Origin: Tatlockia sp. | Lineage (GTDB): Bacteria; Pseudomonadota; Gammaproteobacteria; Legionellales; Legionellaceae | Length of the DNA: 39,931 bases | Assembly (NCBI GenBank): GCA_013697955.1 | Contig: JACCVV010000039.1 | Coordinates: forward strand, 1-39,931 | Reading direction: 5' to 3' | Shown: in pieces, positions 29,940 to 39,931 of the stretch | How positions within the stretch are numbered: the stretch's first letter is position 1 | How the letters are laid out: each line of letters opens with the position of its first letter | Made by a program: the position numbers and the translations under genes | The notes under the pieces: generated by a model | Seen by the model: the letters and a program-made list of their open reading frames with translations, nothing else | What the model was told of the DNA's origin: nothing | The model's database searches: none

Positions 29940-30325
29940 TAGCCTTTGTAGTATGTTTATAAATGTAAACTATAACACTTTATATTTATAAACTATAGTA
30001 CTTTATTTTTATCATATGTCAATATTTATGAATCTCTAGTTTGTAATCCGATTGGAAAGAAATTTCTCATTATTAATAAGGGGAAAATTTAATTTTCGCC
30101 GTCCACAATATGTTGGCAGGGATCAGTGATATATTTTTATGCTTGAAATCCAAGCATAATGTAATTGAGTGTTGGCATAGAATTTTTTACAATTTTTACC
30201 TGCCAGCAATTATTTATGGATTCCAGATTTTTCTGAGATACTAACGATGTAGTAAATATTGATATTATTAACAATATGCTTTATTTTTATAAACAAAATA
30301 CTTTTTTATTAATGTAGAGAAATTA
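29940..30325. promoter_or_regulatory. Divergent control region between lvrR and the double-HTH repressor gene
   Basis: This AT-rich 386-bp stretch has no gene. On the minus strand TTGACA (30017-30022) and TACTAT (29995-30000), 16 bp apart, form a likely lvrR promoter. Other contents are the tandem 23-bp repeats listed separately, a hairpin with 8-bp arms (30138-30145/30151-30158, loop aaatc), and a weak plus-strand promoter candidate TTATTA-17-TATAAA (30265-30293) in front of the repressor gene. The latter overlaps a sequence similar to the repeats (about 30281-30311). No terminator is seen. Confidence 0.5.
29967..30012. repeat. Two exactly adjacent 23-bp direct repeats over the lvrR promoter
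   Basis: 29967-29989 and 29990-30012 are head-to-tail copies (core AAACTATA..ACTTTAT) differing at 3 of 23 positions. The second copy covers the putative -10 box of the lvrR promoter and the first lies at the expected transcription start. A diverged third copy (AAACAAAATACTTT) begins at 30291, just upstream of the repressor gene. They look like operators for a repressor; iterons are an alternative. Confidence 0.7.
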
Positions 30326-30706
30326 GTGTCCATCGAAAGTCCAAGTGATCAAATAAAACAAAAAATAAAAGAAACTGGAATTAAACAAGTCCACCTTGCT
30401 AAAAAGCTAGGAATTTCTCCACAACATCTCAATACTATTCTTTCCAAAAATCAAGAAAATAGCCAATATATGCCTAAGATAGCTGAAATTTTGGGTTTGG
30501 AACAACCAAATGTAGAGAAATTAGTGTCCATCGAAAGTCCAAGTGATCAAATAAAACAAAAAATAAAAGAAACTGGAATTAAACAAGTCCATCTTGCCAA
30601 AAAGCTAGGAATTTCCCCACAACATCTCAATGAGATTCTTTCTAAGAATCAAGATAACAGCCAATATATCCCTAAATTAGCTAAAATTTTGGGTTTTGAA
30701 CAACCT
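30311..30706 (+). repeat. 198-bp tandem in-frame duplication
   Basis: Copy 1 (30311-30508) and copy 2 (from 30509) start with the same 'aatgtagagaaattagtgtc' and run in parallel for about 195 bp, with a modest number of substitutions, mostly in the second half. The duplicated unit includes the ribosome-binding region and GTG start of the gene, so in copy 2 that leader is translated as the linker between the two HTH domains. Confidence 0.9.
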
Positions 30707-31123
30707 ATCGTTGAATTAGATAATATAAAAAATATCCCCATCCTCTCTGAACCGTATCTAAAATTCTTGTCAGAGGGATCAATTTCATTTGAAGATCTAA
30801 ACCACATTGTTTTTAAATCATGGCCATCAATAATTAAAGAAGATTATTATTTTTTTGGGTATGAACTTAGGGAAAATTTAAATTCTGAAATAATTAAAAA
30901 CGATTTATTAATTTTTAGCACTTATATACCGTGTGATATAACAAGGAAAATTGGCATCGCCTTTATAAATGACATGATGTTGATTTTTACTGGTAAACTA
31001 AAATATAATCAAAAAATCATAGTCATTTATAATGAACATAAAAGCTTTGAATTTAAAATCGGAGATCAACTGCTAGGAACTGCAGTTTATTTAGAAAGAA
31101 ATATAGAAAAATGGACAAAATGA
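30326..31123 (+). CDS. Repressor-like protein with two tandem Xre HTH domains and a degenerate S24-type tail
   Basis: This 265-residue protein starts with GTG. Residues 1-66 and 67-132 are two copies of one Xre helix-turn-helix ('IKQVHLAKKLGISPQHLN' in each). At the DNA level the unit is an exact 198-bp head-to-tail duplication with later point changes. The remainder (about 140-265) has the outline of a LexA/CI S24 domain ('FFGYELREN', 'KNDLLIFSTYIPCD', 'IGDQLLGTAVYLE'), but the catalytic Ser-Lys pair seems missing, so no RecA-driven self-cleavage is expected. It is divergent from lvrR and probably controls that promoter. The ATGA overlap with the next gene implies coupling. Confidence 0.75.
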   Translation: MSIESPSDQIKQKIKETGIKQVHLAKKLGISPQHLNTILSKNQENSQYMPKIAEILGLEQPNVEKLVSIESPSDQIKQKIKETGIKQVHLAKKLGISPQHLNEILSKNQDNSQYIPKLAKILGFEQPIVELDNIKNIPILSEPYLKFLSEGSISFEDLNHIVFKSWPSIIKEDYYFFGYELRENLNSEIIKNDLLIFSTYIPCDITRKIGIAFINDMMLIFTGKLKYNQKIIVIYNEHKSFEFKIGDQLLGTAVYLERNIEKWTK

Positions 31124-31396: not shown

Positions 31397-33688
31397 TTAA
31401 ATAAGGGGAAATCTTTTTTCAATTATCTTAGTAATCCAAGGTTTCTCAGTGCTTTTTATATCAAAATTAATTGCTCCAGTAGCAATGTAAATTTCCTTAA
31501 AACCTAAATCATAAATATCTTTTGCATAATCAATACCACTTTTTTCTTCACCCAAATCCAAATCAATATAAATAGGAATATTTCTATTAAATTGATCAAC
31601 ATTCATAATAAATTCATTAACCTTATTGTAAGTAATAATCTTTAAATTTTTAGCTTCAGCAAATAACTCCCAAGATTGAGTATTTCTTCGATCATCATCA
31701 ATAAAAATAAAGTTAATTTGTTTTTCTAAGGTCTTACACTTTGAATTCCACAGTTTGAAAAATGGAACTAAATCTTTAGGCAAAATCTTAAAGCCTTTAT
31801 GAATGGTTTCTTTCATTATTGTTGGATCATACAAATGACTTGTTACCAATATTTTAATCGCATCCATTGGAGAATTTTCTAAAATATGAAGACCATTTTT
31901 ATTTTCATCAAAAAATTCGTAATCACAAAAAATGACTAATTTTTTATTTTTAACATTTTTAACAAAAGTTATAGCCTCTTCTGCCTTATAAATATGTATG
32001 CGCTCAACGTCATGAATTTCTCGGAACATTTCATCCCATACATCATGTACTGATTTACTATCATCAATAATTACGAGTAGTTCATCACTTCGGATTTGAA
32101 ATTCATTTATACACCAGAAAGGAGTTTCACAAGGAGGAAGAGAAATATTAACTGTTGTTCCTTTGCCTTCGATGGATGTTATGTCAAATGCCCCACCAAC
32201 TTGCTGAACAAATTTAATTGCATGAGGCAAACCTAAATTGGTTTTCATTTTATCATTCTTAATATCAAGAGAAATCACTTGGATAAAATCTGAACTCATA
32301 CCCCTTCCATTATCTTTAACAGAGATTAAGGAGCCAGCTAAATTAACCTCAATACATATTTCTACTATTCCACTTTTTGGTAAAATAGCATTGACCGCAT
32401 TATTGATAATATTTGATAACATTCTTTTAAGATTTATCGAATTAAGATAAACCAAACTGAAAACATCGTTTGGACTGAAAGTTAATTCAAATTCGATATT
32501 CTGTTTTGCATACTCTAAACGCTTTTCAGATAAAATTTCTTGGATGCAAGAATAAAGAAATACATAACTATTTTCGACTTCACAGCCATTTTCACTTTTA
32601 TTCTTATATTTAGAGAGCAAACTCCAAGCAATGTCATCTAATCTTCTTATAGCCCTTTTTCCAAAAAAACGCTCAGATTCATCTAATTTTTTTTCGATTA
32701 AACGAAAAAAAGATTCAACTGCTAATAATGGAGACCTCATATCATGTGCTACTTGAGCTAGGTTTTTTCCAAGTTCAATCTCAATTTTGTGATCTTGATA
32801 TTCTTCAATTTCCTGAGCAAGGTATTTTAGTTCTTTAATATATTCATTTTTTAATGTCATATTATTTTTTAGGTTCTTTTCTATTTCTTTAACAGGATTT
32901 GCAATGTATCGGTTTGTTAATAGTTTAATTAATCTTTGCGTTATGAACAAACCAATAGTTGAAATAATAGAAATTATGATAGCAGGAATAAATAATTGAT
33001 ATATGCCTGGTGATGTATGTTTTATGGAAATTAATTCTTTTGCAGAATTGATTAGAGAAAAAGAACCAAATTTTTTGGACACAAATGGGTTAAAATTATC
33101 ACAATTAAAATTTTTATCATTACAATATTTGATATTGGAATTAATTTTTGAAAGATGTTTTAGATAAGAATTTTTTGACATAAAAATAACTATTTTTGCA
33201 TAGCAATTCCCAAACTGGTTATTAATTTCCCCATTCAAATAACAAAGATCAAGACTTACATAAAATAATGATTTATTATTTCCAATATTCAAAATTGGAT
33301 CACTTTCATTTTTATAAACTTTTATTCCAGAAATAATATCATTATCAATGAATCTATTAAAAAGATGCATCATACTAAAAGTATTTAATTTTCTACTATA
33401 CTCTCCTTCGTGAATATAACTTACAAAATCTTGATTATTCACAATTATACTGAGTTTTTCTGAAATATTGAATTGTAATATTGAGTTAGCATTAATAAGT
33501 AACTCTCTACTATCATTTTCTGATTTTTCTTCAAATTTATGATAACTAATAAACATAGCAATAAAACTTGTACATAATCCAAAAAGTATCAAAAACGTGA
33601 TTAGACCATTTATGGCTCTTTTATAAGAGTCAAGATCATTAATTTTCGTGATAAATAAAAAAAACTTTTTGATATTATTTTGTCTCAT
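31397..33688 (-). CDS. Membrane hybrid histidine kinase with two C-terminal receiver domains
   Basis: This 763-residue protein has transmembrane helices at about 28-48 and 235-257 enclosing a periplasmic sensor domain. The H-box is 'LAQVAHDMRSPLLAVESF' (His near 315), and the ATPase domain has the N-box 'NIINNAVNAI', 'VKDNGRGMSS' and 'GKGTTVNISLP'. Two receiver-like domains follow. The first (about 539-650) has 'VIIDDSKSV', 'VIFCDYEFFD', 'LVTSH' and 'KILPK'; the second (about 660-763) has 'FIFIDDDRR', 'IYIDLDLGEE', 'IYIATG'. Phospho-acceptor Asp residues seem present in both. No DNA-binding output domain or partner regulator is seen nearby. It is 3 bp from the binding-protein gene and presumably senses its ligand-bound form. 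Confidence 0.85.
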   Translation of the reverse strand: MRQNNIKKFFLFITKINDLDSYKRAINGLITFLILFGLCTSFIAMFISYHKFEEKSENDSRELLINANSILQFNISEKLSIIVNNQDFVSYIHEGEYSRKLNTFSMMHLFNRFIDNDIISGIKVYKNESDPILNIGNNKSLFYVSLDLCYLNGEINNQFGNCYAKIVIFMSKNSYLKHLSKINSNIKYCNDKNFNCDNFNPFVSKKFGSFSLINSAKELISIKHTSPGIYQLFIPAIIISIISTIGLFITQRLIKLLTNRYIANPVKEIEKNLKNNMTLKNEYIKELKYLAQEIEEYQDHKIEIELGKNLAQVAHDMRSPLLAVESFFRLIEKKLDESERFFGKRAIRRLDDIAWSLLSKYKNKSENGCEVENSYVFLYSCIQEILSEKRLEYAKQNIEFELTFSPNDVFSLVYLNSINLKRMLSNIINNAVNAILPKSGIVEICIEVNLAGSLISVKDNGRGMSSDFIQVISLDIKNDKMKTNLGLPHAIKFVQQVGGAFDITSIEGKGTTVNISLPPCETPFWCINEFQIRSDELLVIIDDSKSVHDVWDEMFREIHDVERIHIYKAEEAITFVKNVKNKKLVIFCDYEFFDENKNGLHILENSPMDAIKILVTSHLYDPTIMKETIHKGFKILPKDLVPFFKLWNSKCKTLEKQINFIFIDDDRRNTQSWELFAEAKNLKIITYNKVNEFIMNVDQFNRNIPIYIDLDLGEEKSGIDYAKDIYDLGFKEIYIATGAINFDIKSTEKPWITKIIEKRFPLI

Positions 33689-33691
33689 ACA

Positions 33692-34768
33692 TTAATTTGC
33701 ACTATCTTTGCTGATTTGAAGCTTAATTTTATTCCAGTTATCATTATAATCTTTCTCGAAATTTTCCACTGGTTGGATCATACGCAATTGGGGAAGTGTT
33801 TTTTTGGTTGTTTCATATAATTCCAAATATGACTTATCATTAATATGATTTTTAAAATATGGAGAAAAATAATAAGTATTATTTTCAAAATATTTTAAGG
33901 TAGATTGATTTTGCAGTACGTTTGCAACACAACTAGTTTCAGCAGTATCTTTCATTTGAACAATTAAATCCGTACAAATAGAGCTGGCATTTGACGGGAT
34001 AATAAATTTATACGGTTTCCCAGTCTTTTTAATATAGAGTAAGGCATCACCAGACCAAATATAGCTAAGAGCAAATTTTTTACTGTCATAAATTTTATTA
34101 AAATCACTAGTAATGTATACTTTAGACTTTTGGGTCATACTTTTTAAATTTTTATAAGTCAATGATACAGTTTCATCATTGTTTTTTTTAATATTATTAT
34201 CATTAGTGTGCCCAATTGTTAATAAATTACCAATCTCTCCTGAGTCATCAACTAAAATTACATTGTTATCCTTAGCAGATTTGAAGATATCCCTCATTGT
34301 TTCATTAGGAGTAATATTTATTAACTCAGGATTATACATAAAACCTACTATGGCATGCGTAAAAAAGGCCGTATTATGTGTATAATTATGCGTCAAATAA
34401 TATTTTTTAAAATATGGATAATAATCATCCGATGATTTCCAGAGATTACTATTTACAATATTCGGAAGCTGGTTTTTTATGGTTCCATAAATCATATTAC
34501 TAAAAATCATGACATCATAATAATCTTTTTGCTTATGAAATGTATGTAAGAATTCTGCATTAGTATAATACGAATCATGAGAAAATTTTACATTACATTG
34601 CCTCTCCACTGCGTTTTTAATTTTCGGATCTTCTAAAAATCCATAAAATGCTATTACATTAACAATTTTTTTAGGATTTAGATCTATGCTTTTAGAAGCT
34701 AAGACATGGTTTGTTAATATTAAACTAATAAATATTATTAAATCTTTCTTCATATTTAATCTAATCAT
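33692..34768 (-). CDS. PotD-like periplasmic solute-binding protein
   Basis: The 358-residue product has a signal peptide (about residues 6-24, 'ISLILTNHVLA') and the plan of a PotD/spermidine-putrescine-type binding protein: 'KKIVNVIAFYGFLEDPKIKN' near the N-terminus, 'DYYDVMIFSNM', 'AIVGFMYNPELI', and 'FALSYIWSGDALLYIKKTG' in the second lobe. There are two paired cysteines late in the chain. No ABC permease or ATPase genes follow, so it is more likely a sensor than a transporter subunit. Its ATG overlaps the hydrolase stop by 4 bp (ATGA); a second ATG 15 bp on (34753) could be used. The ligand cannot be read from sequence. Confidence 0.8.
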   Translation of the reverse strand: MIRLNMKKDLIIFISLILTNHVLASKSIDLNPKKIVNVIAFYGFLEDPKIKNAVERQCNVKFSHDSYYTNAEFLHTFHKQKDYYDVMIFSNMIYGTIKNQLPNIVNSNLWKSSDDYYPYFKKYYLTHNYTHNTAFFTHAIVGFMYNPELINITPNETMRDIFKSAKDNNVILVDDSGEIGNLLTIGHTNDNNIKKNNDETVSLTYKNLKSMTQKSKVYITSDFNKIYDSKKFALSYIWSGDALLYIKKTGKPYKFIIPSNASSICTDLIVQMKDTAETSCVANVLQNQSTLKYFENNTYYFSPYFKNHINDKSYLELYETTKKTLPQLRMIQPVENFEKDYNDNWNKIKLQISKDSAN

Positions 34769-35379
34769 TGTGTATCTTTATTTAGATCTGTTATTAAGTC
34801 TTTTGTATTTTGTATAGATGCAAATCCGAATGACAAATTTTTCAAAGTAGATAAATGTAAATCTTCATTTAAAGTAGCCGTTGCATCACTGATAAAAAAA
34901 ACTCGATATCCATGCATAAAAGCATCTCTTGCTGTTGTTTCACAGCAACAATTAGCCATAACGCCAACAACAATAACATCTTGAATATTATGCCCTTTAA
35001 GTAGGTTATCTAAATCAGTTTTGAAAAAGGCACTATATTGGTTTTTATCGATAATGGTTTTTCCGGTCGTATCAAATCCATCTATCATTTTCCATCCATC
35101 ACTTCCATATTCTATTTTATCACCACCCCACCAATCTACCATGGGTTTTGAAATTTCAGAGCTATCATTATGCCGTACATAAATAATTTTCACCCCTGCC
35201 TTTTCAGATGCTTCAATAATAGATTTAACATTACTTAATTGTTTATCGCTTATTAAATTTAAATCAGTTAGAAAAACATTCTGCATTTCTATAACAAGCA
35301 AAGCTGAACTCTTTGAATTTATGACGAATTTATGAGTATTGTATTCATCTATTTTTTCTAAATTAATTGTATAATTCAT
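34765..35379 (-). CDS. Isochorismatase/nicotinamidase-family cysteine hydrolase
   Basis: This 204-residue cytoplasmic protein has the isochorismatase fold: 'SALLVIEMQNVFLTDLNLIS', 'VKIIYVRHNDSS', 'IIDKNQYSAFFKTDLDNLLK', and 'VVGVMANCCCETTARDAFMH' with 'GYRVFFISDATAT'. The catalytic Lys and Cys are present. The first catalytic residue, normally Asp in an IDMQ motif, is Glu here ('IEMQ'). Family members hydrolyse amides or vinyl ethers such as nicotinamide, carbamoyl compounds or isochorismate. It is the first gene of the cassette; the two following genes overlap or adjoin it. It could make, destroy or modify the sensed ligand. Confidence 0.85.
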   Translation of the reverse strand: MNYTINLEKIDEYNTHKFVINSKSSALLVIEMQNVFLTDLNLISDKQLSNVKSIIEASEKAGVKIIYVRHNDSSEISKPMVDWWGGDKIEYGSDGWKMIDGFDTTGKTIIDKNQYSAFFKTDLDNLLKGHNIQDVIVVGVMANCCCETTARDAFMHGYRVFFISDATATLNEDLHLSTLKNLSFGFASIQNTKDLITDLNKDTQ

Positions 35380-38575: not shown

Positions 38576-38724
38576 AAAAACAAAACTTAGCTCGGAATAA
38601 AGCTAAACACCAAAAAATATCAGGAATTCAAAGCTCCAATTGGTATTCTTTGGCTCATACACTGATTATTTTAGCTTTGTTCCCTAAAAACATCAATATG
38701 TATATTGGTGAAAGGGATTCTTTT

Positions 38725-39931
38725 ATGGAAATTAATAACAAGAACTCGCCAAAGCGAGTCATTGCTCTCTCCTTCATTGACTGGGCAAAAGAAAACAATC
38801 AATTGATTGTCTCTCAACTCATTGATGCAGGGATTGCCTTCCTCAACGAACAATCTGAGAATTTAAAACAACCTGTCTTTCGCCTGGAGTTAGATAACCG
38901 CTGGCATTACATTGATAAGCCTACTAAAAAACAAAGCTATCGTGCATCCCTTCACAGCGATAGTGACGGCGTGCCTTACCTGGCTTTAACCTATTTTACC
39001 TTTCGCCACGGCAGCTACTCTGAAAAATTCAACAGCAAACAGGTTTTAAAAGACCTTTGGATGCAGGAGAGGGCAGGGCGGCCAATCGCTAAAGCACCTG
39101 CAAAGCCCTCTAATAAACCACTAGTTGAAAACGCTAAACCACCCATCATGCACATTGATTGGGTGGCTACTGATTTAGCCCATTGGCAATCAATGCAACC
39201 CATTGGGATAAGCCATTACTTAAAACGAAAAGGGCTTAATGACTTCGTTATTCCAGGTCTTCGCTTTGCTAAGAATCAAGTCGCTGTTGCTATTATCAAC
39301 ACCAACAATGACTTTCAAGGGCTACAGCGCATTTTCAACGATGGTCAAAAACGCTTTACCAAAGGATTGGCTAAAAAAGGTCACTTTGCTGTTATCGGTA
39401 GCGATAGTCTCCCTCAAAAGCCAACCACAATCCATGTCTGCGAAGGAGTGGCAACAGCTGCAACTATCCATCAGGCAACAGGAGAAATTGTCTTTTCAGC
39501 ACTCGATGCCTTTAACTTACTTCCCGTTTGTAAAGCCTTAAAACGCCATTATCCTAAAATACCTATTATCATTTGGGCCGATAACGATTGGCAAAAAGCC
39601 AATCAAACTACAAAGTTTGGACAGGTTATCGGCAATACAGGGCTTATTCAAGCCAACCGTACGGCCTTTAAACTGCGAAATGCCCGCGTTGCAACACCCG
39701 ATTTTTCATCCTTTGAGCCTGAAGACATTAAAGGTGCTACCGACTTTAACGATCTCTATCAATTAAGTGGCCTTGAGTCTCTTTCTAATGTTATTCCACA
39801 GCAACCTGATATCGCTCTAGCCTTATGCCTTGAACTGCGCCACTACCAAAAACTGGCGCATGGCGTTCTTTCGCCTGCTCAATTTAGTGAAGGACTAAAG
39901 GAGAACTACAATAGTCGCTATCTTCCAAGTG
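38725..39931 (+). CDS. Toprim (primase-type) replication protein, cut by window end
   Basis: An open frame of 402 codons runs off the end of the window. The ATG at 38725 has aaaggga 7 bp upstream; an in-frame ATG at 38698 is less well placed. The middle contains 'TIHVCEGVATAATIHQATGE' and 'IPIIIWADNDWQKANQTTKF', with the Toprim Glu and Asp-x-Asp positions, and 'GATDFNDLYQLSGLESL', as in Toprim_3-type primases of plasmids and phages. The N-terminal 130 residues resemble zinc-free primase accessory domains ('WHYIDKPTKKQSYRASLHSD'). A helicase domain often follows in this family. It is the only long plus-strand gene right of the cassette and probably starts a replication operon. Confidence 0.8.
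   Translation, partial: MEINNKNSPKRVIALSFIDWAKENNQLIVSQLIDAGIAFLNEQSENLKQPVFRLELDNRWHYIDKPTKKQSYRASLHSDSDGVPYLALTYFTFRHGSYSEKFNSKQVLKDLWMQERAGRPIAKAPAKPSNKPLVENAKPPIMHIDWVATDLAHWQSMQPIGISHYLKRKGLNDFVIPGLRFAKNQVAVAIINTNNDFQGLQRIFNDGQKRFTKGLAKKGHFAVIGSDSLPQKPTTIHVCEGVATAATIHQATGEIVFSALDAFNLLPVCKALKRHYPKIPIIIWADNDWQKANQTTKFGQVIGNTGLIQANRTAFKLRNARVATPDFSSFEPEDIKGATDFNDLYQLSGLESLSNVIPQQPDIALALCLELRHYQKLAHGVLSPAQFSEGLKENYNSRYLPS

What the first reader, a model, noticed from the sequence alone, without database searches (positions are those of the whole stretch)
31397..35379. Three-gene sensory cassette: cysteine hydrolase, PotD-like binding protein, hybrid kinase with two receivers
The genes overlap or adjoin (ATGA and 3-bp gap) and are much more AT-rich than the transfer genes, so they form one acquired module. 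There is no ABC transporter, so the binding protein likely feeds the kinase, comparable to NspS with MbaA or LuxP with LuxQ. The hydrolase may act on the same ligand, and the output route is unknown because no regulator is encoded nearby. This is the best candidate in the window for an undescribed system.
Basis: partly seen in the sequence, partly recalled or inferred. Interest (0 to 1): 0.8.

Follow-up and report, generated by a model that had tools for sequence, protein, structure and literature searches.

The report
Mobile binding-protein-coupled sensor kinase module
A conjugative element in a Legionella-like bacterium carries a small chemical-sensing unit (an enzyme, a periplasmic binding protein and a matching sensor kinase) whose binding-protein/kinase core recurs as a pair in distant bacteria, so it looks like a real signalling family that we did not find described.

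Summary
The three genes are real and at the stated coordinates. Their core, a PotD-fold binding protein (SBP) directly upstream of a histidine kinase (HK) with one specific periplasmic sensor domain, recurs in 18 loci: Legionellales, four other gammaproteobacterial families, the order of Endozoicomonas, and Bdellovibrionota. No PotABC transporter lies in the flanks that were held. A search with the sensor domain alone found four new loci, and all four have the SBP next door. The sensor model resembles dCache-type domains, LuxQ among them. "The binding protein feeds the kinase" is therefore supported, not shown. A regulator is nearby: a convergent helix-turn-helix gene found in 3 of 143 Legionellales genomes, each time beside this cassette. 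The hydrolase is separable: 5 of 7 close homologues precede the SBP, 2 do not, and the catalytic Asp is Glu in 7 of 7. In relatives the pair lies near LqsR-type or other response regulators, and near methyltransferase or ABM enzymes, which recalls quorum-sensing loci. The cassette sits beside at least two, probably three, kinds of conjugation genes. Ligand, phosphotransfer and output are untested. Verdict: new variant of a known kind (SBP-coupled two-component sensing).

The parts
34765..35379 (-). Isochorismatase-fold cysteine hydrolase (204 aa; no signal peptide seen by eye); E31-K112-C145 where the family has Asp-Lys-Cys
   Evidence: Pfam PF00857 1.1e-38; homologues 73-89%; E31 in 7 of 7 close homologues against D in 13 of 13 weaker Legionellales matches that had loci, of 17 listed. 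The triad is recalled
33692..34768 (-). Periplasmic solute-binding protein, PotD-like (358 aa; signal peptide judged by eye)
31397..33688 (-). Hybrid histidine kinase (763 aa): hydrophobic segments 29-47 and 232-250, sensor between them, H315, HATPase, REC1 (D589), REC2 (D709)
32981..33547 (-). Periplasmic sensor domain used as query (HK residues 48-236); C149 and C162 in 16 of 18, C189 and C196 in 15 of 18 members (pairing as disulfides inferred)
   Evidence: alignment A7, counts, model pLDDT 84.8, structural neighbours
30326..31123 (+). Convergent helix-turn-helix regulator (265 aa; 201 aa in relatives), linked to the cassette
   Evidence: HTH_3 2.4e-9; matches in 3 of 143 Legionellales genomes, 3 of 3 convergent to the cassette HK

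Best explanation
The core is a binding-protein-coupled two-component sensor. A small molecule, most likely amine-bearing, is bound in the periplasm by the PotD-like SBP (inferred from fold and retained pocket residues). The SBP docks on the kinase's sensor domain and switches autophosphorylation at H315 (inferred from gene pairing, parallel divergence and a sensor fold like LuxQ's). Phosphate passes to D589 in REC1 and D709 in REC2 and then to an unlinked Hpt or response regulator (inferred; in relatives LqsR-type, NarL-type or other regulators lie in the locus). In this lineage the cassette travels with a convergent HTH regulator, the likeliest local output or counter-regulator (linkage shown, action inferred). 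The hydrolase is an optional accessory that may clear or trim the ligand (weakest step). The unit is carried as cargo by different conjugative elements.
Against: PMC11113362 (abstract and passages): in Pseudomonas aeruginosa, PF13416 SBPs encoded near AgtS and AruS did not bind those kinases, so neighbourhood does not prove coupling. The LuxQ match is near the level that a common arrangement can reach, and other sensor domains score higher. L124 and L125 lack the conserved cysteines, and my local rescan did not report L125's sensor. Part of the Mantel signal is shared ancestry; and the trees disagree on L021, which joins L122/L123 in the HK tree (82/92) but the window clade in the SBP tree (91/92), while the shared L022+L125 join is of long branches. 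No receiver-type regulator gene was found in the window or the related elements, so the output is open.
Confidence: 0.72

Rival explanations
1. Self-signal (quorum-like) circuit: an enzyme of the locus makes or destroys the signal and the SBP-HK reads it; on a conjugative element this would report donor density or neighbours.
For: A small-molecule enzyme is in the run of genes in 9 of 18 loci: hydrolase in window, L018, L019, L020; SAM-methyltransferase-like protein in L028, L072, L075 (directly upstream) and L124 (two genes downstream of the HK); ABM monooxygenase in L021. LqsR-type regulators lie directly downstream in L122 and about 2 and 5 kb away in L123 and L021 (6sy9 hits 4.4e-62, 1.6e-36, 3e-35). 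In Ralstonia, PhcB is a methyltransferase that makes the quorum signal, PhcS a sensor kinase, and LqsR-family PhcX is coded beside the operon (PMC10653808, passages).
Against: Nine of 18 loci lack such an enzyme in the run (L071 has a convergent carbon-nitrogen hydrolase instead). The methyltransferase was not shown to be PhcB-like and also occurs without the pair. The hydrolase has an altered catalytic residue and occurs without the pair. No export or synthesis route is known.
Confidence: 0.25
2. Sensor of outside amines (polyamine, GABA-like or others from hosts or decaying cells), with the hydrolase as unrelated cargo.
For: Positions aligned with PotD D168, E171, W229, D257 are kept: 175 is D in 13 and E in 6 of 23 (N in 4), 178 is E in 21, 238 is W in 23, 267 is D in 21 and E in 2 (PotD numbering and roles recalled). 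Hydrolase alone, beside an amidase-family gene and a different ParA-type gene, in L104. Two to five tandem, diverged SBPs for one HK in four Bdellovibrionota loci suggest several ligands.
Against: PotD E36 and W255 are not kept: 43 is G in 18 of 23, 265 has no W in 23, so polyamines themselves are not assured. No ligand data.
Confidence: 0.45
3. Remnant of an uptake system: the SBP is a leftover or decoy and the HK senses something else.
For: SBP belongs to the PotD superfamily; SBPs coded near kinases need not bind them (PMC11113362, passages).
Against: No PotABC in the held flanks, order SBP then HK in two phyla, parallel divergence, SBP dN/dS 0.096.
Confidence: 0.1

Closest known systems
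LuxP-LuxQ (Vibrio AI-2 receptor)
   Different: SBP is PotD-like (LuxP is recalled as a sugar-binding type); two receivers; no LuxU or LuxO was sought; sensor carries family-specific cysteines
NspS-MbaA (Vibrio cholerae, Sinorhizobium; polyamine sensing)
   Same: A polyamine-binding SBP used for signalling through a membrane partner (starts of abstracts in a listing)
   Different: MbaA modulates c-di-GMP (GGDEF-EAL recalled); here the partner is a histidine kinase
Lqs / Phc quorum sensing and the LqsR family (LqsR, PhcX)
   Same: LqsR-type regulators in the loci of three relatives; a methyltransferase in the locus of four relatives, as PhcB is in Phc (passages)
   Different: No LqsA seen; LqsS has six TM helices (PMC3376566, passages), these HKs have two or, in L124, three hydrophobic segments around a periplasmic domain; no LqsR-type gene in the window
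AgtS/AgtB, PA0602 and AruS/PA4985 (Pseudomonas)
   Same: PF13416 SBPs for GABA or 5-aminovalerate coded near HKs (PMC11113362, passages)
   Different: There agtABCD codes an ABC transporter and no SBP-kinase binding was found; here no PotABC is linked

Membership tests
PotD-type SBP (PF13416 / polyamine-binding proteins) | PotD-like fold | tested here: met
PotD-type SBP (PF13416 / polyamine-binding proteins) | Score above the Pfam gathering cut-off | tested here: not met
   25.9 bits against 27
PotD-type SBP (PF13416 / polyamine-binding proteins) | Partner PotA, PotB, PotC genes | tested here: not met
   tblastn: none in the held flanks of 18 loci except an ATPase match to a C39 exporter in L021; flanks are short in L019, L028, L030, L124
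LuxPQ-type SBP-coupled HK | LuxQ-like periplasmic sensor domain | tested here: inconclusive
LuxPQ-type SBP-coupled HK | Physical SBP-sensor complex | not testable with these tools
   no complex prediction is offered
NspS-MbaA | GGDEF/EAL output partner (recalled) | tested here: not met
   partner matches HATPase_c, with HisKA and receiver motifs; no GGDEF or EAL match
Lqs system | LqsR-family response regulator in the locus | tested here: not met
   no hit among window ORFs, L018, L019, L020 or their fetched flanks; present in relatives L021, L122, L123
Lqs system | Six-TM LqsS-type sensor | tested here: not met
   two hydrophobic segments in the window HK
Isochorismatase-like cysteine hydrolases (PF00857) | Pfam domain above cut-off | tested here: met
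   133.5 bits against 27
Isochorismatase-like cysteine hydrolases (PF00857) | Asp-Lys-Cys catalytic triad (recalled) | tested here: not met
   Glu31-Lys112-Cys145 in 7 of 7

The most novel reading that the evidence does not exclude
A signalling family not described before, in which one kinase reads one or a bank of dedicated binding proteins for a molecule made or trimmed by an enzyme of the same locus. Legionella-type conjugative elements have captured it, with an HTH regulator, as a portable chemical-communication unit that tunes the element or feeds a second input into an LqsR-type quorum circuit.
Probability: 0.2. Interest if true: 0.85.

Novelty: new variant of a known kind. Interest (0 to 1): 0.62.

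Why it matters
Gene neighbourhood is a poor guide to which SBP-kinase pairs are real (PMC11113362, passages). Here is a family with constant pairing in two phyla, parallel divergence, a sensor fold like LuxQ's and natural experiments: two to five diverged SBPs for one kinase, exchanged enzymes, exchanged response regulators. That makes the recognition between binding protein and kinase, and the ligand, testable. Carriage by different conjugative elements would make it a portable sensor, and LqsR-type partners in relatives point to another input into a known quorum circuit.

Tried and rejected
Composition as proof of a module: rejected. PotABC remnant: not favoured. NspS-MbaA membership: rejected for lack of GGDEF/EAL. 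An obligate role of the hydrolase: not kept. A response regulator inside the element: no hit in the window, L018, L019, L020 or the fetched flanks L129-L132 with a profile of eight regulators or of the three LqsR-type ones; the same profiles do not hit the window HK's own receivers, so their reach is limited. Plasmid collection and viral contigs gave no relatives. Promoter and terminator scans gave no more than shuffles (22 against a mean of 31.8; 0 against 1.4). Folds not listed are not excluded.

Hydrolase comparison: of the 13 weaker relatives aligned, all have D at position 31 and K at 112, but only 2 have C at 145 (10 A, 1 T as aligned), so most are distant and the comparison is loose. 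Transporter control: seven loci of weaker-matching SBPs were fetched with flanks, and six carry PotABC, but three of those six (L024, L077, L079) supplied the queries; of the other four, L076, L078 and L080 have it and L081 does not. Other weak matches were not tested this way.

Literature: no paper on this pairing was seen (0 papers; 12 of 21 listed; 12 of 12; 2 of 2; 8 of 52 listed; 1 of 1). These cover open PMC text only. 6sy9 was not found by name in the library (10 of 19 listed).

Foldseek 'pdb' could not be started; only the VIA-align second look was obtained. ORF starts in fetched loci are mechanical. HK reading frames are short in L019 (688 aa) and L030 (597 aa), both near contig ends.
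Full report
What is there. It carries F-type transfer genes (matches to TraC_F_IV, TraG_N, a TrwB/TraG-D-type coupling protein, TraT) and partition genes.

Conservation of the triple. The SBP protein matched 12 of 92 genomes, own included. The close ones (78-81 %) are G015, G048 and G024, and all three have hydrolase, SBP and HK in the same order. A fourth, G144 (L106; contig length as in L026), has hydrolase and SBP up to the contig end. In 143 Legionellales genomes the SBP alignment matched 9. Six carry the strong family (E 2.5e-76 or better): G000, G015 (two copies), G024, G048, G052, G144. The other three (G002, G159, G177) and a second match in G052 are a short fragment or weak matches.

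The pair beyond Legionellales. A scan of named contigs found relatives in Endozoicomonas, Fluviispira and Spirobacillus (8 loci in all). The Fluviispira phylum gave 7 of 58 genomes at E 1e-8, five strong and two weak. The order of Endozoicomonas gave 10 of 390, two strong and eight weak. Every strong SBP or SBP array whose downstream side is held lies directly upstream of an HK with the same sensor domain. The sensor domain alone, which knows nothing of the SBP, hit 4 of 133 Legionellales genomes (5 domains, all beside the SBP; G048 and G144 are not among the matches, and the 133 were drawn from a larger group) and 5 of 369 Gammaproteobacteria. The four new ones all have the SBP directly upstream (profile E 1e-79, 9.8e-84, 7.2e-58, 2.8e-47). 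My local rescan did not report the L125 sensor, although one search gave it 9.6e-8. In all, 18 loci have SBP then HK, gap -34 to +79 bp: six Legionellales, two of the Endozoicomonas order, six Bdellovibrionota and four other gammaproteobacterial families. SBP and sensor distances correlate (Mantel r 0.918 for all 18; 0.886 for 16 without L019 and L074; 0.684 for 13 also without L018, L020 and L071; p 1e-4 each). Both trees hold L022+L125 (long branches), the four Legionella-type cassette copies and the Spirobacillus pair; they differ on L021.

No transporter. tblastn of PotA, PotB and PotC found no uptake transporter in the held flanks of the 18 loci. The one ATPase match, in L021, is a C39-peptidase exporter. 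Flanks are short for L019, L028, L030 and L124. As a control, seven loci of weaker-matching SBPs were searched: six carry PotABC, three of which supplied the queries; L081 does not.

Kinase. H315, N430 and G461 are kept in 18 of 18. The window copy has both receivers (D542, D543, D589, S617, K638; D664, D665, D709). Across the 18, D589 is present in 14 and absent by gap in 4, D709 is D in 10. HKs without one or both receivers (L021, L028, L075, L122) have separate regulators in the locus, but so do L022, L123, L124 and L125, which keep receiver regions.

Regulators. A helix-turn-helix gene lies convergent to the HK at 30326-31123. It matches 3 of 143 Legionellales genomes, each time convergent to this cassette's HK (window, L018, L020). 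In the two other genomes with hydrolase and SBP the contig ends before that position (L019, L106). In relatives, response regulators share the locus. Those of L122 (directly downstream), L123 (about 2 kb away, divergent) and L021 (about 5 kb away) match the solved response regulator 6sy9 over nearly the whole length (4.4e-62, 1.6e-36, 3e-35). I recall 6sy9 as Legionella LqsR. Its aspartate at chain position 128 would be LqsR D108 with a 20-residue tag (tag assumed), and the receiver at about 80-160 fits PMC3376566 (passages). L124's regulator does not match it. L028 and L075 have regulators with a receiver and a weak LuxR/sigma-type HTH, 42 % identical to each other. L022 and L125 have other receiver proteins.

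Enzymes. Enzymes in the same run of genes vary: the hydrolase (window, L018, L019, L020), a SAM-methyltransferase-like protein (L028, L075, L072 directly upstream, 34-42 % identical; L124 two genes downstream of the HK, profile 3.6e-50; weak Methyltransf_25 and daptide_MTase matches), or an ABM-domain protein (L021). That is 9 of 18 loci; the other nine lack one in the run, though L071 has a convergent carbon-nitrogen hydrolase. The methyltransferase also occurs without the pair: of 5 of 381 genomes, two are the known loci, one lies in two pieces with no SBP or HK nearby, and two are weak. The hydrolase has 7 close homologues in 143 genomes; five precede the SBP and two do not. One of the two (L104) is followed by an amidase-family gene and lies downstream of another ParA-type gene; the other genome (G002) also holds a 44-residue SBP fragment on another contig. 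The catalytic Asp is Glu in 7 of 7, against Asp in 13 of 13 weaker relatives aligned, of 17 listed; only 2 of those 13 show Cys at the catalytic Cys position. The hydrolase's role is therefore open.

Banks of receptors. Spirobacillus (L030) has five tandem SBPs before one HK and a related genome (L071) has four. The four matching positions are 86, 88, 88 and 97 % identical, while paralogues within L030 are 26-41 % identical. L073 and L074 have two each. One kinase may read several ligands.

Mobility. The cassette is beside F-type transfer genes in the window, VirB3/VirB4-type genes in L018, and T2SSE and TrbE/VirB4-type genes in L020, whose order I read as Trb (order recalled). So at least two, probably three, kinds of conjugation genes. 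In L106 it lies beside what look like chromosomal genes (judged by eye). L018 shares the ParA-ParB-158 aa-cassette-HTH-replication block with the window; L020 shares only cassette and HTH.

Known work. NspS-MbaA, LuxPQ and the Pseudomonas AgtS/AruS neighbourhoods are the nearest described cases (listings; passages). The last is a warning: SBPs coded near those kinases did not bind them. Searches showed no description of this family in the held open-access library.

Verdict. A real family of probable SBP-coupled kinases that I did not find described: new variant of a known kind. Coupling is well supported but not shown. The ligand, the enzyme's role and the output are inferred.

Noticed in passing
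30311-30705: 198-bp tandem duplication (2.0 copies, 92% matches) that doubles the DNA-binding region of the HTH gene; relatives L018 and L020 have one copy.
   Followed up: partly
1201-1960: Adjacent genes matching an HVO_A0114-type HTH protein and the toxin family TumE, a likely toxin-antitoxin pair.
   Followed up: no
L030:7891-12933 and L071:5524-9769: Five and four tandem, diverged SBP genes before one kinase; four positions are orthologous between the two genomes.
   Followed up: yes
L021:2031-2993, L122:4875-5897, L123:10918-11919: Response regulators matching solved structure 6sy9 (recalled as LqsR) in the same loci as the SBP-HK pair.
   Followed up: partly
L104:82-1617: The same hydrolase (89%) without SBP or HK, followed by an Amidase-family gene, with a different ParA-type gene upstream.
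   Followed up: partly
L021:11835-14914: C39-peptidase ABC exporter and HlyD-type gene upstream of the ABM-SBP-HK genes in L. nautarum, a possible peptide export pair.
   Followed up: no
L071:12039-12917: Carbon-nitrogen hydrolase gene whose 3' end overlaps the 3' end of the HK on the other strand.
   Followed up: no
L018:15972-16607: LuxR-type HTH protein (GerE 3.3e-14) between the replication genes and the VirB genes of the related element.
   Followed up: no
38650-39930: ORF running off the contig end with a weak Toprim_3 match; a 37% identical relative lies in the L131 stretch of the G024 element.
   Followed up: no
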